Below are positions 12,764 to 40,022 of a stretch of DNA of 64,000 nt, piece after piece. Each line of letters begins with the position of its first letter. Position 1 is the stretch's first letter. Below the pieces are notes generated by a model. That model was not told where the DNA came from. It did not search any database and was given only the letters and a program-made list of their open reading frames with translations. Source of the stretch: an uncultured Alphaproteobacteria bacterium (GTDB lineage: Bacteria > Pseudomonadota > Alphaproteobacteria > RF32 > CAG-239); NCBI GenBank assembly GCA_944391465.1, contig CALXTS010000001.1, positions 90,441-154,440 on the forward strand. Reading direction: 5' to 3'. The position numbers and the translations under genes were made by a program.

Positions 12764-13775
12764 AATTTCTGTGATTATACCGGTTTATAATGCTCAAGAA
12801 TATTTAAGACGTTGTTTGGATAGCGTTGTCAATCAAACTTTAAAAGATATAGAAATTATCTGCGTAAATGATTGTTCAACGGATAATTCTTTACAAATTT
12901 TGAAAGTGTATGCTTTAAAGCATAAAAATTTGAAAGTTATTGACTGTAAAGTAAATGGTGGGGAATCTGTTGCCCGAAATATTGGTTTAGAAAACGCCAA
13001 AGGTGAATACCTTGGCTTTGTTGATAATGATGATGCTATAGATTTGGATTTTTATGAAAAGCTTTATAAGAAAGCTAAAGCAGAGAATGCAGATATCTGT
13101 AAAGGGGAAGTTCATGAAATTTCTTATGATGGCAAGGATGTTTTTGGATATTTGAATCAGTTGATCCGTAAACATGGAAGTAAATTATATTTTTCATATT
13201 ATTGGTGGACGGCTATTTATAGACATTCAATTGTTAAAGATTTTAAAATTAGATTTCCCGAAGGGTATCCTTTGGGAGGAGATGTTTTGTTTTTGAATCA
13301 GGTTTTACTGAATTCACAAAAAATTTCTTTGGTCGATGATGCTTTTTATCATTATTATCGTCGAAAAGATAGCGGGGATTCAAAGGTTTTATCAATGGAA
13401 AAATTGAAATCTGTTCTTACAATTCATGGTATAATTTTAGATAATTTATTGTCTTCATCAGTGTGTGTTACAGATATAAAAGGGGTTAGTTACGTTTGTT
13501 CTTGGTGTTTAGATTCTGCTTTAAGTTATGCTTTTAGGGTTAATAGTTTAGAAGGATTGGATTATTGTGTTGAAAAAGCATTTATCTTTTATAAAAAAGC
13601 AAAAAATAAATTTTTAGCTGACTGTGTTAGTGTTTTGCCAATTGTTATGGATTTTTTAAGGAGAGATGACAAAGAAGGGTTAAAGTTATTTTATCAGGCA
13701 AATAATTCTCCGTCTAAAATGTTTATGGCAAATTTAAGATGGTTGCATAATAAGAAGGAGAAGAAAAATGATTAA
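12756..13775 (+). CDS. Glycosyltransferase family 2 (copy A)
   Basis: 339 aa. The N-terminal GT-A domain has ISVIIPVYNAQEYLRRCLDSV, the NDCSTDNS loop, the NGGESVARNIGLENAKGEYLGFVDNDDAID donor/metal region and, later, YYWWTAIYRHSIVKDF. It overlaps the preceding gene by 8 bases with AAGGA before its start, so the two are coupled. The first ~230 bp are nearly identical to the gene at 14655, while the second halves differ, pointing to duplication and later divergence of the acceptor domain. Confidence 0.9.
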   Translation: MTKISVIIPVYNAQEYLRRCLDSVVNQTLKDIEIICVNDCSTDNSLQILKVYALKHKNLKVIDCKVNGGESVARNIGLENAKGEYLGFVDNDDAIDLDFYEKLYKKAKAENADICKGEVHEISYDGKDVFGYLNQLIRKHGSKLYFSYYWWTAIYRHSIVKDFKIRFPEGYPLGGDVLFLNQVLLNSQKISLVDDAFYHYYRRKDSGDSKVLSMEKLKSVLTIHGIILDNLLSSSVCVTDIKGVSYVCSWCLDSALSYAFRVNSLEGLDYCVEKAFIFYKKAKNKFLADCVSVLPIVMDFLRRDDKEGLKLFYQANNSPSKMFMANLRWLHNKKEKKND

Positions 13776-28261: not shown

Positions 28262-29182
28262 ATGACAGACAATCCCAATGACAGATTCGTTTTGAGTGAA
28301 GATGAACATAACAAATGGATGGAAGAAGTTGTTCTTCCGATGTTTGCTCACGGTAAAGTATCTGTCGAACAGCCGACTTTTGTTTTATTAACCGGACAAC
28401 CCGGAGCCGGCAAAAGTTTTTCATCAATGGAATATGCCCGCCGTTTTTTGAATGAAGATCCGGTGCGTTTCGGGGCTGATGATTTGAGGGCGGTTTTGCC
28501 TTATGCCGGACGCGCTATGCAAGAAGATGAAGCTCAGTATCCGTTTTTGACTAAAAAAGATTCCGGTATCGGAAGAGAGAAGTTGGTCGATTATGCGATT
28601 GAAAATCAATTGAATATTTTGGTTGAGAGTATTTTGACAAATCCCGAAGATTATAAAATGGGTACTTTGATGAAAGTTAAAAATGCCGGATATAGAATTG
28701 AATGTTTGGCTCTCGGTGTGCATCGGAATGTGAGTGAAGCCGGTATGTTTATGCGTTATGAAGAACAAAAAAATATTTCCGGTTTTGGTTTTGCTCCGAC
28801 TTATGAGGTTCATAATAAAGCGTACGAATTAATGCCGGATATTGTCGCTAATATGTATGAATATGGTATTGCAGACAAAGTCAGTGTCTATAACCGCAAG
28901 TTTGATTGTTTTTATGATAGTGATAAGGATAAAGGTGGTTCTTTAGCTATTCGGAATGCGATTGTTCGTTCTCGTAACAGTTCTTTGAATTTCAGAGAAA
29001 TGTCAGATGTTGTTTCAAAATGGGAGAGTGTTCTTGACTATATGCGCAAACGTAATGCTTCTCCTGAAGAATTTAAGACGGTTAATATGATGTATGATAC
29101 CTTTAAGAAGAGTACGGGAATTATGTTTTCTCCGGAATTTCAAAAGTTTTCAAAATTCGGTAAGTCATCTAAAGGGGAATAA
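28262..29182 (+). CDS. Zeta-toxin-family P-loop kinase
   Basis: 306 aa. Walker A LLTGQPGAGKSFSSM (residues ~42-55) is followed by the acidic/arginine motif FGADDLRAVLP and a second segment VESILTNPEDY with VHRNVSEAGMFMRYEEQ, the pattern of zeta toxins and related kinases. Zeta toxins phosphorylate UDP-GlcNAc. A chromosomal member may instead be a housekeeping or phage-defence kinase. It is preceded by an 81-aa helical ORF. The ~100 C-terminal residues are not assigned. Confidence 0.78.
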   Translation: MTDNPNDRFVLSEDEHNKWMEEVVLPMFAHGKVSVEQPTFVLLTGQPGAGKSFSSMEYARRFLNEDPVRFGADDLRAVLPYAGRAMQEDEAQYPFLTKKDSGIGREKLVDYAIENQLNILVESILTNPEDYKMGTLMKVKNAGYRIECLALGVHRNVSEAGMFMRYEEQKNISGFGFAPTYEVHNKAYELMPDIVANMYEYGIADKVSVYNRKFDCFYDSDKDKGGSLAIRNAIVRSRNSSLNFREMSDVVSKWESVLDYMRKRNASPEEFKTVNMMYDTFKKSTGIMFSPEFQKFSKFGKSSKGE

Positions 29183-32041: not shown

Positions 32042-32069
32042 TGTATTCATAATATATATTATGCGACAA
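32042..32069 (-). other. dif: Chromosomal dif site (XerCD recombination), left junction of the prophage
   Basis: Read on the minus strand: XerC-type arm TTGTCGCATAA, six-base centre TATATA, XerD-type arm TTATGAATACA. E. coli dif has GGTGCGCATAA, TGTATA and TTATGTTAAAT, so the layout and key bases agree. Host genes on both sides converge on this point. The XerD arm lies on the host side and the XerC arm on the prophage side. Confidence 0.85.
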
Positions 32070-32072
32070 ATT
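32053..32072. repeat. Left attachment repeat (20 bp, identical to 39987-40006)
   Basis: A 20-bp perfect direct repeat with the copy 7,934 bp to the right. It contains the six-base exchange region and the XerC arm plus three flanking bases. Confidence 0.85.
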
Positions 32073-32141
32073 AAGAAAGATTTTATTGAACCTCAAAAAA
32101 ATGTTACTGCCCTTTTGTTTTAACAGATTTAGGAGTGTGCC

Positions 32142-32573
32142 ATGTTAGATAAAACGGACGAAGTAAAAAAAATTTCTGGGGCTGTGGATAACTTAATAAA
32201 AATCATAAACAATCAACAATCCCAAATTAAAGAACTTGAGGACAAACTGCGGGAAAAAGATGCCCACAACTGGGATAATTACGGTTTTAGAGTTGTCAAG
32301 GCAATTTTACGATATATCGCGCAGGGAATCGAAGAACAAGAGGCTATACGTCTCGCCTATGATGATTTTGGCGGCAAAATGTCTATGCGTACAATACTTT
32401 GCATTTGGCAATATTCCCACGCCTCAAAAGCCGGATTAATTTTATACGGGCGCGCCTATTGTGCAAAAAAAATGCGCCTCGCAGGCTTTAAAGCCTACGA
32501 AATAGCGCAAACTTTAGGGTTGTCGATAACAACCGTGCAAAAACTGTTAAAGCAGTGTTGTATTAGCGATTAG
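32142..32573 (+). CDS. Prophage coiled-coil / helix-turn-helix protein (143 aa)
   Basis: An AGGAG site precedes the ATG. Residues 1-45 form a coiled coil (VKKISGAVDNLIKIINNQQSQIKELEDKL). The C-terminus GFKAYEIAQTLGLSITTVQKLLKQ is a clear helix-turn-helix. It is one of only two plus-strand genes in the element and lies at its left edge. In the excised circle its start would overlap the end of the regulator gene at 39621, so the two would be one operon. Probably a transcriptional or replication regulator. Confidence 0.75.
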   Translation: MLDKTDEVKKISGAVDNLIKIINNQQSQIKELEDKLREKDAHNWDNYGFRVVKAILRYIAQGIEEQEAIRLAYDDFGGKMSMRTILCIWQYSHASKAGLILYGRAYCAKKMRLAGFKAYEIAQTLGLSITTVQKLLKQCCISD

Positions 32574-32724
32574 CTTTAGCATTTTCGGCAATGTACATCC
32601 CGATAAACGACAAAACAACGCCGATTATAGCGGTTTCGACTGCTCGGCCGTTTGAAATGTATGTTGCGGCCGCGGTACAAGCTAAGCCGGTTGCTAATAT
32701 TTTGTTTTTATTGTCACCCCTCAT
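32563..32724 (-). CDS. Small prophage membrane protein (53 aa)
   Basis: Two hydrophobic segments (ILATGLACTAAATYIS and ETAIIGVVLSFIGMYIA). The pattern NK-small/aromatic-G-x-A with a late IIxVxxxxIG resembles the 46-aa product at 32907-33047, suggesting an ancient duplication. It overlaps the convergent plus-strand gene by 11 bases. The ribosome site is weak and a hairpin lies just upstream. Possibly a holin or virion membrane protein. Confidence 0.5.
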   Translation of the reverse strand: MRGDNKNKILATGLACTAAATYISNGRAVETAIIGVVLSFIGMYIAENAKANR

Positions 32725-32728
32725 CTAA

Positions 32729-32760
32729 AATTGCCGGTATTTTAAACCGGCAATTCTTTT
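32729..32760. terminator. Hairpin, probable terminator near the left end of the prophage
   Basis: A ten-base-pair stem AATTGCCGGT / ACCGGCAATT with a 7-base loop is followed by CTTTT on the plus strand. It could stop the plus-strand transcript of the 143-aa gene or attenuate the minus-strand late operon. Confidence 0.65.
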
Positions 32761-32767
32761 AAGTCAA

Positions 32768-32905
32768 CTAATTAAAAATATCAAGACATTTGTCTATAAA
32801 GTCTTTTTTACGGCGTACAGCGCGTTTTTTCTTTTTCGGAGTCATAGACACCTTTTTAACGCATTTTGCTTTGTATGCCGTTTTTTTAGCTATTTTTGCC
32901 GCCAT
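32768..32905 (-). CDS. Very basic small prophage protein (45 aa)
   Basis: Lys/Arg make up over a third of the residues (KIAKKTAYKAKCVKK, TPKKKKRAVRRKK). An AGGGGG site precedes the ATG. The size and charge suggest a DNA-condensing virion protein, as in several small tailless phages, or a nucleic-acid-binding regulator. No homologue is recognised. Confidence 0.65.
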   Translation of the reverse strand: MAAKIAKKTAYKAKCVKKVSMTPKKKKRAVRRKKDFIDKCLDIFN

Positions 32906-32906
32906 T

Positions 32907-33047
32907 TTAACCCCCTATAAGTTGTTGTAAAATGTTAATGATAGCTTCTGGGGCAGACATAGCACCGGTAAGAACCCCAGCAATTGCAGTTGCTACACCA
33001 GCCCAAAAGCATTTATTTTTTAACTTCTCAATCGTTTTTTGCCACAT
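32907..33047 (-). CDS. Small prophage membrane protein, holin-like (46 aa)
   Basis: It starts MWQKTIEKLKNKCFW and has one long hydrophobic segment AGVATAIAGVLTGAM. Phage proteins with a short basic N-terminus, the K-x-K-x-FW motif and a helix followed by P-E are frequent near lysis genes. The longer reading to 33095 lacks a ribosome site; AGGATC lies before the ATG at 33047. It overlaps the next upstream gene by 28 bases. Confidence 0.6.
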   Translation of the reverse strand: MWQKTIEKLKNKCFWAGVATAIAGVLTGAMSAPEAIINILQQLIGG

Positions 33048-33178
33048 AGTTCTAGATCCTGTAAAGTTTCGATGTCCCTTTCGATAAGCGCGCACCGTTT
33101 ATCGAATTTGCTGTATAATAATAAAACCGCAATAAGTGTCGGCGAATTGCCTAAGAGCTGTATGAATAGGTCTGGCAT
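33020..33178 (-). CDS. Small prophage protein with N-terminal TM and charged tail (52 aa)
   Basis: GAGGTAGGA precedes the ATG. The residues NSPTLIAVLLLYSKF form a membrane segment and RCALIERDIETLQDLE a charged helix. The topology (one N-terminal TM, helical cytoplasmic or periplasmic part) is like small lysis accessory or spanin-like proteins. It overlaps the downstream 46-aa gene. Confidence 0.6.
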   Translation of the reverse strand: MPDLFIQLLGNSPTLIAVLLLYSKFDKRCALIERDIETLQDLELCGKKRLRS

Positions 33179-33182
33179 AGTC

Positions 33183-33368
33183 CTACCTCACTCTCTTGAA
33201 AATATAGAGCGCGGCAATACCGGCCGCCACCATAAGCGTTTTATCCCACCAGCTAAAACTTGGTGTTTTGTCCGTTGTTTGAGCAATTTTATCATCGGTT
33301 TCTTTTTCATAAATAATACCGCTAACTAACCCGCTCAACCCTGATAGAACTATCCATATAATAGGCAT
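33183..33368 (-). CDS. Small prophage membrane protein (61 aa)
   Basis: AGGGGGT ribosome site. Two hydrophobic helices (PIIWIVLSGLSGLVSGIIY and LMVAAGIAALYIF) are separated by a charged loop with SFSWWDKT. The hairpin topology is that of a class II holin or a virion membrane protein. It is next to the peptidoglycan hydrolase, which supports a lysis role. Confidence 0.65.
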   Translation of the reverse strand: MPIIWIVLSGLSGLVSGIIYEKETDDKIAQTTDKTPSFSWWDKTLMVAAGIAALYIFKRVR

Positions 33369-33380
33369 TTCGACTACCCC

Positions 33381-33863
33381 CTAAGCATAAAACGTATGAT
33401 TGCCGATACTAGCAACCACTTGCATTTTGTTAACCCATGACGGCGCTTTAGATAGACTACCAAGCGCCAAATAATTAGTTGCTCCGTTGGTGATGTCCGG
33501 GAGCGCGCCGGCATAAGCTAGGCCGGCCAGATTCTTGGCAACCGCAAAACTATCGTCGGAATCGTTCACAGCTAACATAGGCGCATAATTCGGGTCCGAC
33601 TTGTTCCAAACGCTGAATTGGCTTTTTTTAGTGCATACTTCTTTGGGAGTTGCACCCCACCAGCTGCCGGCTTTAACCCTATTCATGATTACATTTAAAA
33701 CTGCCTGCATTCCCTTTATTCCTTCTCCGCGTGCCTCTCCCCAAGCTGTTCGAGCCATTATATCAATTTCATGTTCATCGTTTGTTGCAATCATTTTGCC
33801 GCCTCTCAATAAAAAATAAATACCGGCAAAAGCTACAAGACCTGCGCCGATAGGATTTTCCAT
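33381..33863 (-). CDS. Prophage cell-wall hydrolase, SleB/Hydrolase_2 family
   Basis: 160 aa from the ATG at 33863 (GGAGGATAGT upstream; a longer reading to 33893 overlaps the next gene). An N-terminal TM (GAGLVAFAGIYFLLRGG) is followed by DIMARTAWGEARGEGIKGMQAVLNVIMNRV, with the catalytic Glu in GEARGE, and QFSVWNK. SleB-like lytic transglycosylases cut the glycan strand. The anchor suggests a virion-associated enzyme for entry or an endolysin held in the membrane. Confidence 0.88.
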   Translation of the reverse strand: MENPIGAGLVAFAGIYFLLRGGKMIATNDEHEIDIMARTAWGEARGEGIKGMQAVLNVIMNRVKAGSWWGATPKEVCTKKSQFSVWNKSDPNYAPMLAVNDSDDSFAVAKNLAGLAYAGALPDITNGATNYLALGSLSKAPSWVNKMQVVASIGNHTFYA

Positions 33864-33864
33864 A

Positions 33865-34185
33865 CTATCCTCCAAGCTCTTGAATACGAACACGCCAAGC
33901 AGCTCTTTGTTTAATTAATTCCGCATAATCTTCTGCAGTGGCTACCCCTTCTGAAATTTTAATAATAGCATAATCTGATTCTGATAACTTAGATTTTAAT
34001 TTAATTATTTCCTCTGCAGCTACAAGTTCTGCAGGTTTTTCTGGTGCATAGCCTTCCTGATAAAATTTCCCATTATATGAAAAATCCAAATCAACAAAAT
34101 CTAAATTTTTTTTTTCAGCTTCTATTTGATTTATCACTTTATATTCACGAGTTGTTTTATCAATTAATTCAGCTCTTAATCTCAT
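33865..34185 (-). CDS. Tail-fibre-chaperone-like protein of the prophage
   Basis: 106 aa. The end LKSKLSESDYAIIKISEGVATAEDYAELIKQRAAWRVRIQEL resembles the C-terminal helix pair of phage tail assembly chaperones (SDYxxxK, then AWRxxI). Such a protein in a genome without tail genes suggests that it assists folding of a receptor-binding spike. The base composition is more AT-rich than the other phage genes. Confidence 0.6.
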   Translation of the reverse strand: MRLRAELIDKTTREYKVINQIEAEKKNLDFVDLDFSYNGKFYQEGYAPEKPAELVAAEEIIKLKSKLSESDYAIIKISEGVATAEDYAELIKQRAAWRVRIQELGG

Positions 34186-34489
34186 TTCTTTCTCCTACAA
34201 AAAAACATACAACTCCTGATCCTGCTCCTACCAAATTTTTAAAAGTTATCACATCTCCTTTAAACACACGAATTGGAGTTTGAATATATGACCCACAAGA
34301 AAATGAGTACATATATATTATCATTGCTCTATTACCATTTATATATGTCTCAAAATGCATAACATTATTATATGTATGATCATTGAATGTCATAAATCCA
34401 TTTTCTTCACAAACATATCCTGAAGAAATTTGTTTTATGTTACTAAAATCAGGAGCTTTTTCTAAATAAGGATTGTTTAAAATTGTCAT
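34169..34489 (-). CDS. Putative receptor-binding/spike domain protein (106 aa)
   Basis: Soluble and beta-rich, with GYVCEENGFMTFNDHTYNNVMHFETYINGNRAMIIYMYSFSCG and VITFKNLVGAGSGVVCFFVG, like the distal beta-sandwich of phage fibres. It overlaps the chaperone-like gene by 17 bases and abuts the 209-aa beta-rich protein. It is AT-rich compared with the flanking genes, consistent with exchange of a host-range module. No exact family is recognised. Confidence 0.55.
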   Translation of the reverse strand: MTILNNPYLEKAPDFSNIKQISSGYVCEENGFMTFNDHTYNNVMHFETYINGNRAMIIYMYSFSCGSYIQTPIRVFKGDVITFKNLVGAGSGVVCFFVGERNEIKS

Positions 34490-35118
34490 TAGTCAAAACT
34501 CCCGACTGCTAAAGTGTCGCCGTCTGTACCGTAAACCGTTAAATCGGTTGCTAAGGCATATTCGAACGTGCCTTGAGGTTGTAATTGTAAGCCGTCAGTA
34601 CCTGTCCCGCCGATGTACATAACGTTGCCGCCGGTGTTTTGGATGACAATTTGCTGTGCGGCCGGAACGGTTACGCTACCGTCTGCGATTGTTAAGGTTG
34701 CCGCGCTAAAGCCGTTATATTGCGCCGGCTCTGTGCGTACGTTGCCGGTAACCGATAAGCGGCTGTCGTCAAAATAACCAATTCCCGCGCCTACTTTTAA
34801 GGTAATACCTTGATTTTCCGGCGCAAAAATTTGCGCGTACGGAATGACGGAGTTAAATTTAATACCTAAGCCGCTTTCAAAGTTGGTGCGGCCGGTATTA
34901 GTTGACCATGCGACATCAAATGTACTCGTTGCCGACAAGCACCGAAAATAGTTAAACGGATTGTTAAGCGTATAAACTTCGCCAGCCTTTAATGTGATTT
35001 CGAATTCACGATATGACGATTGCTGTTGCCCGTTGTTAATCGGCAACATGGTTACACTGCCGTTTAATGTATCCGTTAGGCGTTCGATTTTTTCGATAAC
35101 CTCGTTAATATCTGCCAT
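34489..35118 (-). CDS. Beta-rich prophage structural protein (vertex/spike candidate)
   Basis: 209 aa. A short N-terminal amphipathic helix (INEVIEKIERLTDTL) is followed by ~170 residues of beta-prone sequence (YREFEITLKAGEVYTLN, LGIKFNSVIPYAQIF, TLTIADGSVTVPAAQQIVIQ, GTFEYALATDLTVYG). The length and composition fit a jelly-roll penton or spike base in a tailless phage. It sits directly upstream of the receptor-like genes. Confidence 0.6.
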   Translation of the reverse strand: MADINEVIEKIERLTDTLNGSVTMLPINNGQQQSSYREFEITLKAGEVYTLNNPFNYFRCLSATSTFDVAWSTNTGRTNFESGLGIKFNSVIPYAQIFAPENQGITLKVGAGIGYFDDSRLSVTGNVRTEPAQYNGFSAATLTIADGSVTVPAAQQIVIQNTGGNVMYIGGTGTDGLQLQPQGTFEYALATDLTVYGTDGDTLAVGSFD

Positions 35119-35481
35119 TTATATACCTTTCAGAATTTTAGGAGCTAAAATAATGGCCAGCAGTCCCGCGCCAATCATTAATACCGGCTTTAACTGCTGG
35201 ATAATGCCGGTACTCTCGGAATATGCCGATTGATAACCTTTAGCCACCTGTTCAATTGATTTGCCAGCTAAGTTTGAATTACCGGTAGTCGCGGCATTAG
35301 CCATTGACTGAACGGCCTCTAAAAAGCCGCCTAAATCCTCACCGGCTAAACCGTAAATAGTTTGGTCGCCTGCTGATTGAAAGTTACCGGTTGCCAAATC
35401 GCCAAGGGTTTGTGATACCGTGGTTGTGTAGTTGGTTGTTGTACTGCTCGAATGTGATTTAGAGCCGCCAAATAAACCCAT
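35119..35481 (-). CDS. Single-TM prophage protein (120 aa)
   Basis: A Ser/Thr-rich N-terminus (SKSHSSSTTTNYTTT), a Gly/Ala-rich middle and a C-terminal TM (LMIGAGLLAIILAPKILKG). GAGGGGGTTATA upstream. It is one of three consecutive genes with a polar N-terminus and a C-terminal TM, as expected for proteins of an internal virion membrane. Confidence 0.7.
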   Translation of the reverse strand: MGLFGGSKSHSSSTTTNYTTTVSQTLGDLATGNFQSAGDQTIYGLAGEDLGGFLEAVQSMANAATTGNSNLAGKSIEQVAKGYQSAYSESTGIIQQLKPVLMIGAGLLAIILAPKILKGI

Positions 35482-35699
35482 TATAACCCCCTCTTAATCA
35501 GCTTTAACGCAATAAAGGCAAAGCCGGCAAGGGCTAGCGTTTTAACCAGCCCTAAACCTTGTTTGCCTGATGTGTTGGATATAAAATTGTTGCCGATTTT
35601 GCCGCCGGTTGCGGTTGATGTCGCCGAACTGCCAAAGTCATATGACATTTCGCCCGATGCTTTGCCAATTAATCCGGCGTTGCCGTCACTACCTGCCAT
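35481..35699 (-). CDS. Single-TM prophage protein (72 aa)
   Basis: A Gly/Ser/Ala-rich N-terminus and a C-terminal TM (VKTLALAGFAFIALKLIKR). AGGGGGATAAA upstream. It shares its architecture with the two flanking genes and overlaps the next start by one base. Confidence 0.7.
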   Translation of the reverse strand: MAGSDGNAGLIGKASGEMSYDFGSSATSTATGGKIGNNFISNTSGKQGLGLVKTLALAGFAFIALKLIKRGL

Positions 35700-35709
35700 T
35701 TTATCCCCC

Positions 35710-35982
35710 TTACATCAATTTTTTAACACCAAGCCCAACGGCTAACAGTCCAAGCGTACCGCCGATAATCCACAAAATCGAAGTGGTTGAGATTTCAACA
35801 TCACCGATTTTGATAACGCCGTCATCGCGGGTTTGTTCGGCCTGTTGCTTAAGAACATCATTAGCGCCCTTAAGATATGCGGCCTCATCGCTTGAACTAT
35901 TGCCGGTAAAGGCTTGGTAAACGTCACCTGCGCCTTTTCCTAAATCAGTTGCCGCGCCAATTAAATCGTTATACCAAGCCAT
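35710..35982 (-). CDS. Single-TM prophage protein (90 aa)
   Basis: An N-terminal helical soluble part (LKGANDVLKQQAEQTRDD) is followed by a C-terminal TM (ILWIIGGTLGLLAVGLGV). AGGGGGT upstream. It lies directly after the capsid-protein candidate, so it may be a virion membrane protein linking capsid and bilayer. Confidence 0.7.
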   Translation of the reverse strand: MAWYNDLIGAATDLGKGAGDVYQAFTGNSSSDEAAYLKGANDVLKQQAEQTRDDGVIKIGDVEISTTSILWIIGGTLGLLAVGLGVKKLM

Positions 35983-35992
35983 ATTTTACCCC

Positions 35993-36925
35993 CTATGCTG
36001 TGCGGATAGTGTCAAGAGCCAGTAAACCGTTAGAGTTTACCAAATTTTGAACGCTTGCCGGGCAATTATGAACCTTAACAACCGGCATATCATAAGAACC
36101 GGATGTCGGCGCAGTGGTGAATGTTGTGCGGACGGACAATTCAGACGTTACGTCTTGAACCATTAAGCCGCTGTTAGCCGTGCCGTCAGTGTAGGAGTGA
36201 ACAAAAGCGCCGTCAATAACGCCGTAGCCATCGAGGTTGTTCATTGCGTTGTTAGCCGACAAGCTGATTGCGCGCGCAACGTTAACGTTGTTAACCAAGG
36301 TTTCACCCTGAGAGATTACACCGCCGCCATTGTAGGCAATAGCCAACAAAAACAAATCGTTGGCGTTTTTCGGCAAAGTGTTAACTTGCGATTGTCCAAC
36401 GGCCGCAAATGACTGGACGTTGTTATTAAACTGAACATAGCTATCGTTCCAGTCAGCCTCAACCTGTTTGCGGATAGAATACAAGTTAACATCGGTAACG
36501 CCGGTAATGGTTGCGTTCGAATAGACTTGAACAACCAGCGAGCTGATTTTTTTGTTCGGGTCAGTACTACCGGATTTACCACAACGCCACGCGAACTCAT
36601 CGCGCATAATGCCTGCTTGGTACAGTAAGCGTCCGATGTTTAAAGAAAATACGTTAGTCAAAGTTGTTTGATTAACGCGAGTGCCTAAGTATGTGAACAA
36701 GTCGATAAGCTGGGTTAACTTTACATCAACCGCGTTCATACCATTAATCAGCACAACAACGCGGCTGATAGCGGCTTTACAAGCGGCCAAAGTTGCCGGC
36801 GCGCCGCTGTTGGTGAATTCGATAATCAAGTCGCGGATTACGTCATAGCAGTTAACGTTAAACGGAATCATTGAACTAGCCGTTACGGCTTTGGATTCCT
36901 CAAAGTTTCTAATAGGTGTCTGCAT
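35993..36925 (-). CDS. Putative major capsid protein of the prophage
   Basis: 310 aa, no signal or TM, the longest protein of the element. It is rich in Asn/Thr/Val beta strands with conserved turns (NSGAPATLAAC, GSTDPNKKISSLVVQVYSN, NDLFLLAIAYNGGGV, GSYDMPVVKVHNCPA) and has a long helical N-terminal part. The position between the packaging ATPase and a set of single-TM virion-like proteins is that of the double-jelly-roll capsid gene in PM2-like phages. The fold is inferred; no sequence match to PM2 P2 was verified. Confidence 0.65.
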   Translation of the reverse strand: MQTPIRNFEESKAVTASSMIPFNVNCYDVIRDLIIEFTNSGAPATLAACKAAISRVVVLINGMNAVDVKLTQLIDLFTYLGTRVNQTTLTNVFSLNIGRLLYQAGIMRDEFAWRCGKSGSTDPNKKISSLVVQVYSNATITGVTDVNLYSIRKQVEADWNDSYVQFNNNVQSFAAVGQSQVNTLPKNANDLFLLAIAYNGGGVISQGETLVNNVNVARAISLSANNAMNNLDGYGVIDGAFVHSYTDGTANSGLMVQDVTSELSVRTTFTTAPTSGSYDMPVVKVHNCPASVQNLVNSNGLLALDTIRTA

Positions 36926-36945
36926 TTGCTAAAACTCCCAAAAAA

Positions 36946-37032
36946 TTATTTAGACGACAATTTGGTTGACGCGTAGTTATAAATTACGATGCCGGCAACA
37001 ACTGCCAAAGCCATTTTTACCATTGATTTCAT
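36946..37032 (-). CDS. Tiny prophage membrane peptide (28 aa)
   Basis: It is one TM helix (MVKMALAVVAGIVIY) with a basic start and Ser/Lys end. AAGG lies 9 bases before the ATG. It leads the capsid operon. Such mini-proteins are common in membrane-containing phages, but translation of this one is not proven. Confidence 0.5.
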   Translation of the reverse strand: MKSMVKMALAVVAGIVIYNYASTKLSSK

Positions 37033-37108
37033 TGTGTTTACCTTTCAGTTATGGAAGAAGAATATTACGGGTAAACCTTATGGGAGTTTTTTGTTTTTTG
37101 CAAAAAAA

Positions 37109-37134
37109 CAAAAACGGCGGAAATCCGCCGTTTT
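37109..37134. terminator. Terminator between ATPase gene and capsid operon
   Basis: AAAACGGCGG / CCGCCGTTTT perfect stem with an AAAT loop (TTT rich on the minus strand, downstream of the ATPase stop at 37161). It divides the minus-strand genes into an early block (rep to ATPase) and a late structural block. Confidence 0.75.
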
Positions 37135-37138
37135 GTTC

Positions 37139-37155
37139 TACGTAACGTACGTAAC
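37139..37155. promoter_or_regulatory. Candidate operator: TACGTAACGT repeat
   Basis: Overlapping palindromic ACGT blocks (TACGTAACGT, GTACGTAAC) lie between the ATPase stop and the terminator. The same ten bases occur at 39595-39604, just upstream of the prophage repressor-like gene, next to the perfect palindrome GTTACGTAAC. Shared sites suggest binding by one regulator. Confidence 0.45.
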
Positions 37156-37160
37156 TTTTT

Positions 37161-37835
37161 TTAGAGGTGTGTTAAAGTTTGGCCGCCTGATTTGTAGATA
37201 TATTGATAATTTCCCAAATTCCGCAGGGTTTCACGGTATTCCTTGCCTAAAGCCCTGGCCGCAACATCAATATCGCTCGGCTCGGCGTGCCTAAACCAAT
37301 ACACCCCGGAGCAATTACCCCTGAAGCAAATATCGACTTGGTGCGGCCGCTGACTGATACCGATTAGGTTAATGCCATAATGACGGCCGCGGCGGCAAAG
37401 GTAAGCAAAACCGTTTTGTGGGTCTCGCTGGGTGATTCCGGACGGAAAAGCAATATCTAACTCGTCAACAAATAGCGTTATTTGCCCTTGGTGCGTGCCG
37501 GCTTTATATCCGCCTTGCAGTTCAAGTAAAAAATAACATAATTCGTTTAGCTCTTTGATTTCATTGCCAAAAGTCGGAATAAAATCAAATCTAAACCCCT
37601 TGCAAAAATCCCTTTTAAAGGCAATTTTAAGGCGGTCAATACTGCTAAAGACTCCGGTAATACCGGCGGAGGTTGCAAGCTCCGCCAGCGGGTCAAAATA
37701 AATCAATCGGCTAAGGTTAGCGGTTAATTCTCGGGCTTTGGTTGTTTTTCCGCAGCCTGACGCCCCAAAAATCCCCACCCTTTGCGCTTGCCTGATGATT
37801 GCGCCGCTTTTTGTTTGATTTTTTCGTTTAACCAT
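37161..37835 (-). CDS. Prophage packaging-type ATPase (P9-like / FtsK-HerA superfamily candidate)
   Basis: 224 aa. Walker A GIFGASGCGKTTKA (P-loop at residues 24-31), Walker B ITLFVDELD (~119-127), then ISQRPHQVD as the probable sensor/arginine region. Size and motif spacing fit genome-packaging ATPases of tectivirus/PM2-type phages. A Zot-like ATPase of filamentous phages is the alternative. No TM is seen. The first 112 bases overlap the preceding gene in another frame. Confidence 0.75.
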   Translation of the reverse strand: MVKRKNQTKSGAIIRQAQRVGIFGASGCGKTTKARELTANLSRLIYFDPLAELATSAGITGVFSSIDRLKIAFKRDFCKGFRFDFIPTFGNEIKELNELCYFLLELQGGYKAGTHQGQITLFVDELDIAFPSGITQRDPQNGFAYLCRRGRHYGINLIGISQRPHQVDICFRGNCSGVYWFRHAEPSDIDVAARALGKEYRETLRNLGNYQYIYKSGGQTLTHL

Positions 37836-38278
37836 ATCTTTGCTTTCTGTAAGTAGTTAATGCCCGTCCAATTTAGCAATATTGCGTTTGTTTCAGTGGT
37901 TGCCCATAGGCTCACAATCGCCAAATCGCCGAATAAATGCGCATTTTTGTCGATTAGGAACCGCAAAAAACGGTATTTGTTTGCCAACTCATAGATTTTT
38001 TGCGCGGCAATAGCTTGGCCGCGTTCATGGATGTTACCGAAAGCATCGGCGGCCACTTCCGGGGACTTTAGAAAAGTTAAAAAATCGTTAAAACATTTAT
38101 TAAATTCATCTTGCGTATAAAGCCCGCTATTCGTCATCGTCGGCGAGTAATTCGGCAAACCAGCCTCGGCCACTTGTTCCGGTTGTTCGTTGAGTTCCGG
38201 CACGGGCGGCAGGTTGTCCGTCTGTCCGTCCGTCAGTTGTGGCTCTGTCAATTCCGGTGTCGTTTCTTGGTTGTACAT
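37724..38278 (-). CDS. Hypothetical prophage protein (184 aa)
   Basis: An acidic, Pro/Glu-rich N-terminus (residues 1-50) followed by a helical domain (FNKCFNDFLTFLKSPEVAADAF, RFLRFLIDKNAHLFGDLAIVSLWATTETNAILLNW) with one moderately hydrophobic segment, and a basic C-terminus. AAAGGAG upstream. It overlaps the zinc-ribbon gene before it by 152 bases and the ATPase after it by 112 bases. The function is unknown; it may be a replication or packaging partner. Confidence 0.65.
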   Translation of the reverse strand: MYNQETTPELTEPQLTDGQTDNLPPVPELNEQPEQVAEAGLPNYSPTMTNSGLYTQDEFNKCFNDFLTFLKSPEVAADAFGNIHERGQAIAAQKIYELANKYRFLRFLIDKNAHLFGDLAIVSLWATTETNAILLNWTGINYLQKAKIWLNEKIKQKAAQSSGKRKGWGFLGRQAAEKQPKPEN

Positions 38279-38510
38279 CGTTTTTATTCTCCTTTGGTTT
38301 GATTGAGGTTATAACGCCTATTTTGTCGGTTGCTACGCTTTGTCCGGCCATTAGTAACGGCAAATATCTTTTAGACATTTTTCCGTTAAATTTAACCACG
38401 CATAGATTGTCGCAATACATGTACAGCTTGTTATTTTTGTCAACGCGCAAATCCTGCAATGGCTCGCCGCACACCGGGCAAGTTATGCGGCCGATTGTGT
38501 TATTTTTCAT
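38127..38510 (-). CDS. Zinc-ribbon prophage protein (127 aa)
   Basis: Residues 8-45 carry ITCPVCGEPL and MYCDNLC, four cysteines in a zinc-ribbon arrangement. The rest is polar and low complexity (TTDGRTDGQPAARAGTQRTTG). AGGGGGA before the ATG. The 3' 152 bases are also read in another frame by the next gene, so the low-complexity tail may be a by-product of that overlap. Possibly a single-stranded-DNA-binding or topoisomerase-like accessory. Confidence 0.65.
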   Translation of the reverse strand: MKNNTIGRITCPVCGEPLQDLRVDKNNKLYMYCDNLCVVKFNGKMSKRYLPLLMAGQSVATDKIGVITSIKPKENKNDVQPRNDTGIDRATTDGRTDGQPAARAGTQRTTGTSGRGWFAELLADDDE

Positions 38511-38524
38511 TATCGTCCCCCTGC

Positions 38525-38689
38525 TTATTGAAAGAATACGGCAAAAACTCGAATTTCATAGGTGTTACGGCGTTTTTTTTTGATTTTTTCCCATTGTTGC
38601 CGTACTTCCTCGGAAAATTCGCCGACAAAATCGTATATTTTGGTGTTGCTACGCTTGCCGCGCAACTCGGTAATCTTAACTTTATACAT
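38525..38689 (-). CDS. Small prophage protein (54 aa)
   Basis: It is charged and mixed alpha/beta: YKVKITELRGKRSNTKIYDF, a helix EEVRQQWEKIKKKRR and a hydrophobic end EIRVFAVFF. It overlaps the preceding 41-aa gene by 8 bases. No family is recognised. Confidence 0.5.
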   Translation of the reverse strand: MYKVKITELRGKRSNTKIYDFVGEFSEEVRQQWEKIKKKRRNTYEIRVFAVFFQ

Positions 38690-38807
38690 TTTTATTTTTC
38701 CTTTGCAAAAAATCTATGGTTTCCGCCAGTGCGCGGCGGTCTTGTTCGGTCAAAACACAATAATAATGCTCTAAAATTGCTAACAAAAACCGCGTGTAAA
38801 CTTCCAT
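38682..38807 (-). CDS. Small prophage protein (41 aa)
   Basis: A two-helix peptide (YTRFLLAILEHYYCVL and EQDRRALAETIDFLQRK). The ATG overlaps the stop of the replication gene (TAATG), the common sign of translational coupling. Function unknown. Confidence 0.5.
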   Translation of the reverse strand: MEVYTRFLLAILEHYYCVLTEQDRRALAETIDFLQRKNKNV

Positions 38808-39490
38808 TATACCACCTCTACGCTTTTTAATACGTTTGAGTTTGCCGGAAGTATCGCGAGCGGCGCGCCAAATTCGCTCTTAATATCCGCTACGAGTTCC
38901 GGAAGTCTTAGATTAATATTTTTTTCGCCTAAACGGCTAATTGGACGGATTGCTAAACCGGTATTTGTTTTTATAACTGTTGCCCACAAATAAACATCTT
39001 GATAATGATTAGCTATAAATTCGACTATTTGACGGTCTTTTGTTTCAATTTCCGGTTTTTCCTCAATAACCTCTTTTGATTTTTCGCGCGTGCGCGTTTT
39101 TAAATTCTTAGAATTTAAATATACTTCTTTTAAATCTACTTCTTGTGTCGCATTTTCGCGACTACCTAGTTGCATTTTTGAGACTACCCTAGTCGCATTT
39201 TCGCGACTAGGTAACGGATTAAAATCGATATAATAATAGTTAGCGCTAAGCCCTTTATTTACATCATTTTGGCGGCGGATATAACCTAGTTGCTCCAATT
39301 TGGAAAGGCTTCGAAATACTGAAGCACGGTTTAAGCCGGCCTTGGCCGCGATAGTGTTAGCAAATACATGACAAACCCTATCGGCGCGCGTATAGCTCGC
39401 CAGTGTTCCGAACACCTTGTAATCGGCAGCGCTTAAATTTTCGCTGAAGATGCTAACCGGCATCATTATAAAAGGATAATCATTTGCCAT
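38807..39490 (-). CDS. Prophage replication initiator-like winged-helix protein
   Basis: 227 aa. The N-terminal ~90 residues form a winged helix with the LSAADYKVFGTLASYTR opening and AAKAGLNRASVFRSLSKLEQLGYIRR, as in HTH_36-type plasmid and phage replication initiators. The middle is a charged linker, and the C-terminus (VADIKSEFGAPLAIL) is short. No rolling-circle HUH motif or primase motif is seen. It is the first gene of the minus-strand transcript, divergent from the repressor-like gene. AGGTGGTG upstream. Confidence 0.7.
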   Translation of the reverse strand: MANDYPFIMMPVSIFSENLSAADYKVFGTLASYTRADRVCHVFANTIAAKAGLNRASVFRSLSKLEQLGYIRRQNDVNKGLSANYYYIDFNPLPSRENATRVVSKMQLGSRENATQEVDLKEVYLNSKNLKTRTREKSKEVIEEKPEIETKDRQIVEFIANHYQDVYLWATVIKTNTGLAIRPISRLGEKNINLRLPELVADIKSEFGAPLAILPANSNVLKSVEVV

Positions 39491-39620
39491 TTACACCACC
39501 TTTAACAACTACTTACCTAATATAGTAAGTATAAGCTATACATTAAATAGTTAAAAAATAGTTGTCAATATTATGTTTTTGTGATACCTTAGGTTACGTA
39601 ACGTTAAAAGAGGTTGTAAA
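39491..39620. promoter_or_regulatory. Divergent promoter/operator region of the prophage
   Basis: This region separates the rep gene (minus) and the repressor-like gene (plus). A TTGACA box on the minus strand (39563-39568) points to a rep promoter. Inverted repeats TACTTAC / GTAAGTA (39510-39531) and GTATA / TATAC (39529-39541) overlap its start region. GTTACGTAAC (39593-39602) lies just before the repressor-like gene. The pattern is that of a lysogeny switch. Confidence 0.6.
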
Positions 39621-40022
39621 ATGAATGAATTTGATATGTATGCTAAGTCGGCTATTGCGCGTTGTAATCTTAAGAGTTACTACGGGTTAGCTAAAGAATT
39701 AGGCATCAGCCAGCCGGCATTATATAGGTTAAAAAAAGGGCAAAATCTCCCCTCATGTAATACTATGATAAAAATTTCAAAATTAGCGGGGATACCGGAA
39801 GAAAAAGCCCTGCTCGACTTAGCGGCGTGGGCAAACTCAGACAAGCCGGAAGTTCAAAAAATATGGTTGCGAATTGCTAAAATGATAGGTTGCGTTGCGC
39901 TGTTTTTAGTGTTTCATAGTTTTGATGTAAACGCTTGTATTTTCACGAAAAAAGCAGAAAGTTTTAACACTTTTGACTATGCAACTTATATATTATGCGA
40001 CAAATTTGTTTATAGGTTGTAA
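39621..40022 (+). CDS. Prophage repressor-like protein (XRE-type HTH plus TM; DUF3693-like)
   Basis: 133 aa. The HTH is YYGLAKELGISQPALYRLKKGQNLPSCNTMIKISKLAGI, followed by EEKALLDLAAWANSDKPEVQKIWLRIAKMI and a hydrophobic segment (GCVALFLVFHSF). This layout matches DUF3693-like proteins of filamentous phages. The last residues are read through the right attachment repeat and host DNA. In the excised circle the frame would continue from residue 129 for 25 residues to a stop that overlaps the start of the 32142 gene. It probably controls lysogeny. Confidence 0.75.
   Translation: MNEFDMYAKSAIARCNLKSYYGLAKELGISQPALYRLKKGQNLPSCNTMIKISKLAGIPEEKALLDLAAWANSDKPEVQKIWLRIAKMIGCVALFLVFHSFDVNACIFTKKAESFNTFDYATYILCDKFVYRL
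39987..40006. repeat. Right attachment repeat (20 bp)
   Basis: It is identical to 32053-32072. The XerC arm and centre are intact, but the adjacent XerD-side sequence (39976-39986, read on the minus strand AGTTGCATAGT) does not match an XerD arm. So the right junction is a half-site, as in Xer-dependent integrating elements. Confidence 0.8.

What the first reader, a model, noticed from the sequence alone, without database searches (positions are those of the whole stretch)
39621..40022. Integration changes the C-terminus of the prophage regulator and separates it from its operon partner
In the integrated form the repressor-like gene runs across the right repeat and ends 5 residues into host sequence (133 aa). 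Joining the repeat at 39987 to 32053 keeps the frame open for 25 residues past the shared repeat-encoded residues, giving about 153 aa, and the stop then overlaps the ATG of the 143-aa HTH gene at 32142 (ATGTTAG). The circle would therefore have a coupled two-gene operon and a longer regulator, and the lysogen a shorter regulator and uncoupled partner. This could be a built-in sensor of integration state.
Basis: seen in the sequence. Interest (0 to 1): 0.8.

Follow-up and report, generated by a model that had tools for sequence, protein, structure and literature searches.

The report
Prophage repressor recoded by integration
A small tailless-phage genome sits in the bacterial chromosome at the site used to separate chromosomes (dif), and because the joining point lies inside its repressor gene, integrating swaps the end of the repressor and cuts it off from its partner gene; this switch layout is known from other phages but is newly seen in this virus group.

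Summary
A 7,934-bp integrase-less prophage (double-jelly-roll capsid, Vinavirales type) lies between two 20-bp copies of a dif-derived core, at 32053 and 39987. Integrated, the HTH regulator is 133 aa and ends 5 residues into host DNA. Joined in silico, the frame runs on to 153 aa and its TAG overlaps the ATG of the 143-aa HTH gene by 7 nt. Three diverged relatives in the same bacterial family keep the layout (152, 157 and 160 aa; stop within 25 nt of the partner's ATG; product of chance probabilities about 6e-5). In one of them, attL, attR and the circular attP junction all occur in one public assembly. A related genome has the empty dif with orthologous flanks. The regulator belongs to PHROG 638, the family of VGJphi ORF154 and XacF1 ORF12, where dif also lies in the 3' end and a second gene overlaps. 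Published work reports phiRSS0 ORF13 shrinking from 156 to 130 aa on integration. Mycobacteriophage BPs shows how such a swap can control repressor activity. So this is a new member of a known kind, in a different virus realm. Which form is active here, and whether the tail or the coupling matters, is untested.

The parts
32053..39986 (.). DJR (Vinavirales-type) prophage, 7,934 bp, no integrase; crossover within the dif central hexamer
   Evidence: direct repeat; gene content; orthologous empty dif in G024
32042..32069 (-). attL: complete dif (XerC arm TTGTCGCATAA, centre TATATA, XerD arm TTATGAATACA read on - strand); the XerD arm comes from the host, the XerC arm from the phage
   Evidence: single-copy dif in 29 of 35 genomes of the genus; sequence
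39976..40003 (-). attR: host XerC arm plus centre, and a degenerate phage arm that encodes part of the repressor
   Evidence: sequence
39621..40022 (+). HTH regulator, lysogen form, 133 aa, last 5 codons from host DNA; PHROG 638 family
   Evidence: phrog_638 E 2e-16
32071..32148 (+). 25 codons plus TAG that extend the regulator to 153 aa in the circle
32142..32573 (+). 143-aa HTH protein (partner gene); start overlaps the stop of the circle-form regulator; own Shine-Dalgarno AGGAG
39550..39568 (+). Conserved box GTTAAAAAATAGTTGTCAA upstream of the regulator, probably part of its promoter/operator region
   Evidence: near-identical in all four elements; function inferred
38807..39490 (-). Replication initiation protein, divergent from the regulator
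   Evidence: phrog_8102 E 2e-13
35993..36925 (-). Major capsid protein, PM2 P2-like (double jelly-roll)
   Evidence: 37-40% identical to MCPs of which one passes Pfam P2_C (E 4e-9)
37161..37835 (-). Packaging ATPase
   Evidence: P-loop; phrog_2666 E 4e-15
33381..33893 (-). SleB-type cell-wall hydrolase (endolysin)
   Evidence: Pfam Hydrolase_2 E 1e-18

Best explanation
This is an integrase-less Vinavirales-type prophage that host XerC/XerD inserted at dif. Its attP lies inside the 3' end of its PHROG-638 repressor gene, which overlaps a second regulator gene in the circle. Shown from sequence: the circle encodes a ~153-aa repressor overlapping the partner gene; the lysogen encodes a 133-aa repressor with a host-derived end and leaves the partner 8 kb away at the other end of the element. 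Inferred: this works as an integration-dependent switch. In the free circle the long repressor is attenuated by its hydrophobic/basic tail (unstable, or held at the membrane) and the partner is co-expressed, favouring replication. After integration the short repressor is the stable, active form that maintains lysogeny, and partner expression falls because it loses the repressor's promoter. Excision restores the long form.
For: Architecture. Relatives: G029 157 aa (14-nt overlap), G012 152 aa (stop 14 nt before the ATG), G117 160 aa (25-nt overlap), regulators 39-42% identical to the window's. attL, attR and attP coexist in the G117 assembly. Host encodes XerC and XerD. Family: window regulator hits phrog_638 at 2e-16, VGJphi ORF154 at 8e-50, XacF1 ORF12 at 5e-43; hhalign 97.9%, E 4e-13. 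In VGJphi the annotated functional attP lies inside ORF154 and ORF136 overlaps it. In XacF1 dif lies in ORF12 with a 4-nt overlap to ORF11. [quoted passage not shown] The phiRSS0 lysogen, carrying the truncated 130-aa form, resists phiRSS0 (PMC3816273). BPs: short prophage form active, long viral form degraded (PMC4557955).
Against: No functional data for any of these elements. The tails are not alignable and none ends in an ssrA-like LAA. Tail charge or amphipathicity beats shuffles clearly only in some (window charge P 0.03; G117 hydrophobic moment P 0.009; G012 and G029 not). The partner has its own ribosome-binding site. The window's own circle was not observed.
Confidence: 0.55

Rival explanations
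1. Coupling only: the frame is kept open through attP so that ribosomes finishing the repressor re-initiate on the partner gene. The tail peptide has no function; what integration changes is partner expression.
For: Stop position relative to the partner ATG is conserved (-14 to +25 nt) while the tail sequence is not; inovirus pairs overlap too, by 4 to 77 nt.
Against: Partner genes carry their own Shine-Dalgarno. Tails repeatedly encode hydrophobic or basic-amphipathic segments, and in XacF1 a second strongly hydrophobic segment.
Confidence: 0.25
2. Neutral siting: dif was captured at a dispensable gene end, so the phage loses nothing on integration; both repressor forms work alike and there is no switch.
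For: attP sites at gene 3' ends are common (general knowledge); the host-derived ends of the lysogen form differ in every element; group-2 relatives have attP between genes and no repressor.
Against: A neutral tail should collect stops: four diverged elements are all open. The same siting recurs in inoviruses and in further alphaproteobacterial homologues.
Confidence: 0.15
3. Opposite polarity: the long circle form is the active regulator, for example limiting copy number or establishing lysogeny, and the lysogen form is a weakened derivative.
For: Free-phage phiRSS0 ORF13 has been proposed to act on host genes (PMC3816273).
Against: The phiRSS0 lysogen is immune to phiRSS0 although only the truncated form is expected there; the BPs precedent has the short form active.
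Confidence: 0.05

Closest known systems
phiRSS0 ORF13 (Ralstonia inovirus; PMC3816273)
   Same: HTH regulator with dif/attP in its 3' end; 156 aa in the phage, 130 aa in the lysogen (26-aa change); Xer integration; regulatory difference already proposed
   Different: Filamentous ssDNA phage; here a double-jelly-roll tailless phage. The phiRSS0 record was not in the collection, so its sequence was not compared
XacF1 ORF12 / Cf1c p8 (Xanthomonas; PMC4076744, PMC5666396)
   Same: PHROG 638 regulator of 152 aa, dif inside its 3' end, second gene overlapping by 4 nt; gene needed for a stable prophage
   Different: Filamentous phage; partner gene shows no evident similarity to the window's partner; circular state and integration shown experimentally
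VGJphi ORF154-ORF136 and relatives (VFJ, VCY, VfO3K6; Vibrio)
   Same: PHROG 638 regulator of 148-154 aa overlapping a second regulator gene; functional attP annotated inside ORF154 in VGJphi
   Different: Filamentous phages; VGJphi has a two-arm attP, here one arm is degenerate
Integration-dependent immunity of mycobacteriophage BPs (PMC4557955)
   Same: attP inside the repressor gene; integration shortens the repressor C-terminus (136 to 103 aa)
   Different: Own integrase, unrelated tailed phage, ssrA-like tag in the long form; no such tag here
Jorvik, NO16 and gut Vinavirales clade A (Mestraviridae) (PMC10589892, PMC9966536, PMC9502842)
   Same: Tailless double-jelly-roll phages; Xer/dif integration proposed for Jorvik and NO16; clade A has alphaproteobacterial hosts and SleB lysins
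   Different: attP inside the repressor was not mentioned in the passages read; Jorvik attP lies beside an HTH gene with a non-coding stretch between; the integration route of most gut Vinavirales was called unclear

Membership tests
PHROG 638 phage regulators (VGJphi ORF154 / XacF1 ORF12) | Sequence homology over the HTH and following region | tested here: met
   E 2e-16, residues 11-111 against 11-107/145; hhalign 97.9% over residues 16-88
PHROG 638 phage regulators (VGJphi ORF154 / XacF1 ORF12) | Pfam DUF3693 middle region, as in VGJphi, VfO3K6 and XacF1 | tested here: not met
   DUF3693 hit in those three but not in the window or its three relatives; filed at PHROG level only
Xer-dependent integrative elements (IMEX) | No integrase; insertion at host dif; dif restored at one end | tested here: met
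   No recombinase found among the main genes scanned; empty dif in G024; complete dif at 32042-32069; host XerC/XerD present
Xer-dependent integrative elements (IMEX) | Recombination catalysed by XerC/XerD | not testable with these tools
   needs xer mutants or in vitro recombination
Integration-dependent immunity | attP within the repressor ORF; two C-termini | tested here: met
Integration-dependent immunity | Prophage form active, viral form inactive through proteolysis | not testable with these tools
   no ssrA-like end seen in the long forms; activity unknown
Vinavirales (double jelly-roll) | PM2 P2-like capsid plus packaging ATPase | tested here: met
   relative G117 passes Pfam P2_C cutoff; window MCP itself only P2_N E 0.024 but 37% identical to G117's; ATPase phrog_2666. 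AlphaFold model too poor to use (pLDDT 38)

The most novel reading that the evidence does not exclude
A repressor-plus-dif cassette has moved between filamentous ssDNA phages and tailless double-jelly-roll phages, and in both the dif-adjacent tail acts as a removable membrane or instability module, so that the host's chromosome-resolution enzymes directly convert an inactive repressor into an active one.
Probability: 0.2. Interest if true: 0.72.

Novelty: new member of a known kind. Interest (0 to 1): 0.45.

Why it matters
It gives an integration route for gut alphaproteobacterial Vinavirales-type prophages, which the 2022 gut survey called unclear. It suggests that splitting the repressor at dif is a general lysogeny strategy across unrelated phages that borrow Xer, so integration state could be read directly from a protein's C-terminus. 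That is testable with simple reporter constructs.

Tried and rejected
Searches of IMG/VR with the regulator and capsid and of the phage collection with the window's capsid and regulator found no close relative, so no dN/dS on the tail was possible. phiRSS0 record not in the collection. AlphaFold model of the capsid was too poor to use. The extended 153-aa form was not folded because it is not a contiguous sequence of the window. More distant regulator homologues (L108, L109, L110, L113, L117) end at or near dif-like sequence, but no second att copy was found in the fetched stretches, so their circle forms could not be built. Considered and rejected: the extended frame as chance. An ssrA-type degron is not visible.

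Full report
What is there. The window holds a 7,934-bp prophage between two identical 20-bp sequences, 32053-32072 and 39987-40006. Its genes include a PM2 P2-like major capsid protein (35993-36925), a packaging ATPase (phrog_2666), a SleB-type lysin (Pfam Hydrolase_2), a replication initiator, an HTH regulator at the right end and a second HTH gene at the left end. No integrase was found among the ten main genes scanned. The host genome encodes XerD- and XerC-like recombinases.

Where it sits. The repeats derive from dif. A TTGTCGCATAA-TATATA-TTATG site occurs once in each of 29 of 35 genomes of the genus. G024 has an empty dif between orthologues of both window flanks, a TldD-like gene (55% identity) and a small membrane protein (84%). 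The left end of the prophage carries a complete dif (32042-32069). The right end carries the host XerC arm and a degenerate phage arm that encodes part of the regulator.

The observation. Integrated, the regulator (39621-40022) has 133 residues and the last five come from host DNA. Joining the two repeats gives 153 residues and a TAG that overlaps the ATG of the 143-aa HTH gene by 7 nt.

Chance or not. In one element the open frame has P about 0.08. Three more prophages were found. G029 gives 157 aa with a 14-nt overlap, G012 gives 152 aa with the stop 14 nt before the ATG, and G117 gives 160 aa with a 25-nt overlap. The product of the four probabilities is 5.8e-5. This is not a strict probability because the elements share ancestry, but the regulators are only 39-42% identical to the window's and the tails are no longer alignable, so stops had time to arise. 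In G012 the two cores are not identical, so its joining point is less certain.

Circle junction in an assembly. In G117 the contig C22 reads from host through attR and the prophage, then past the far att into the start of the same prophage, ending in a 77-bp overlap. Contig C3 begins with the attL junction, the far end of the phage joined to host DNA. So attL, attR and attP are all represented in one assembly, as expected if circles or tandem copies coexist with the integrated form.

Both orientations. In the window and G117 the phage keeps the XerC arm on the partner-gene side; in G012 and G029 it keeps the XerD arm there, and those elements sit the other way round relative to host genes compared with the window. 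The central hexamer TATATA is self-complementary in the window, G029 and G117, which would permit this. The regulator reads the core in different frames in different elements (YILCDK, YIMRQ, YYVY), so the core-coded peptide itself is not the conserved thing.

Regulation. All four elements share a box, GTTAAAAAATAGTTGTCAA or close to it, upstream of the regulator and divergent from the replication gene, probably the regulator's promoter/operator region (inferred). In the circle this promoter would serve both genes. In the lysogen the partner lies beyond attL, behind a host gene and a stable hairpin, but keeps its own Shine-Dalgarno, so it may still be translated if transcribed. All four regulators carry a conserved hydrophobic stretch (KMIG...), kept in both forms. 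The circle tails add a hydrophobic helix (G029) or basic, partly amphipathic segments (window, G012, G117); statistical support for these properties is mixed.

What it is like. The regulator belongs to PHROG 638 (2e-16), the family of VGJphi ORF154 and XacF1 ORF12. In those filamentous phages the dif-like attP also lies in the 3' end and a second gene overlaps. For XacF1 the split of ORF12 and its need for a stable prophage are published (PMC4076744, PMC5666396). For phiRSS0 ORF13 the change from 156 to 130 aa is published together with the proposal that function differs before and after integration (PMC3816273). Mycobacteriophage BPs shows the logic experimentally with an unrelated repressor (PMC4557955). 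So the kind is known; new is its occurrence in double-jelly-roll phages of gut-type Alphaproteobacteria, for which the integration route was described as unclear (PMC9502842).

Verdict. Observation confirmed; architecture conserved and real; the sensor-of-integration reading is plausible, already proposed for related phages, and untested here.

Noticed in passing
L031 (G050) 4641 and 12875; L033 (G037) 6854 and 15165: Related double-jelly-roll prophages at dif that lack the repressor: the replication gene and the HTH partner gene diverge across attP instead.
   Followed up: partly
window 32053-39986 versus L005 and L006: Elements of one family sit at the host dif in opposite orientations, with either the XerC or the XerD arm retained by the phage.
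   Followed up: partly
window 39147-39209; L005 9344-9523; L006 9957-10086; L032 7473-7566: Short direct-repeat arrays inside the replication initiator gene, iteron-like, in all four elements; possibly the replication origin.
   Followed up: no
L108, L109, L110, L113, L117: Further alphaproteobacterial PHROG 638-like regulators (several beside packaging ATPase genes) whose 3' ends run into or lie close to dif-like sequence; L113 has a stop just before it.
   Followed up: partly
L111 (G063) about 13027-13362 on the reverse strand: A regulator homologue ending in KKLAA (ssrA-like) with a dif-like sequence about 100 nt downstream rather than inside the gene.
   Followed up: no
window 28262-29182: P-loop kinase-like gene (GQPGAGKS) found next to dif in many genomes of the genus.
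   Followed up: no
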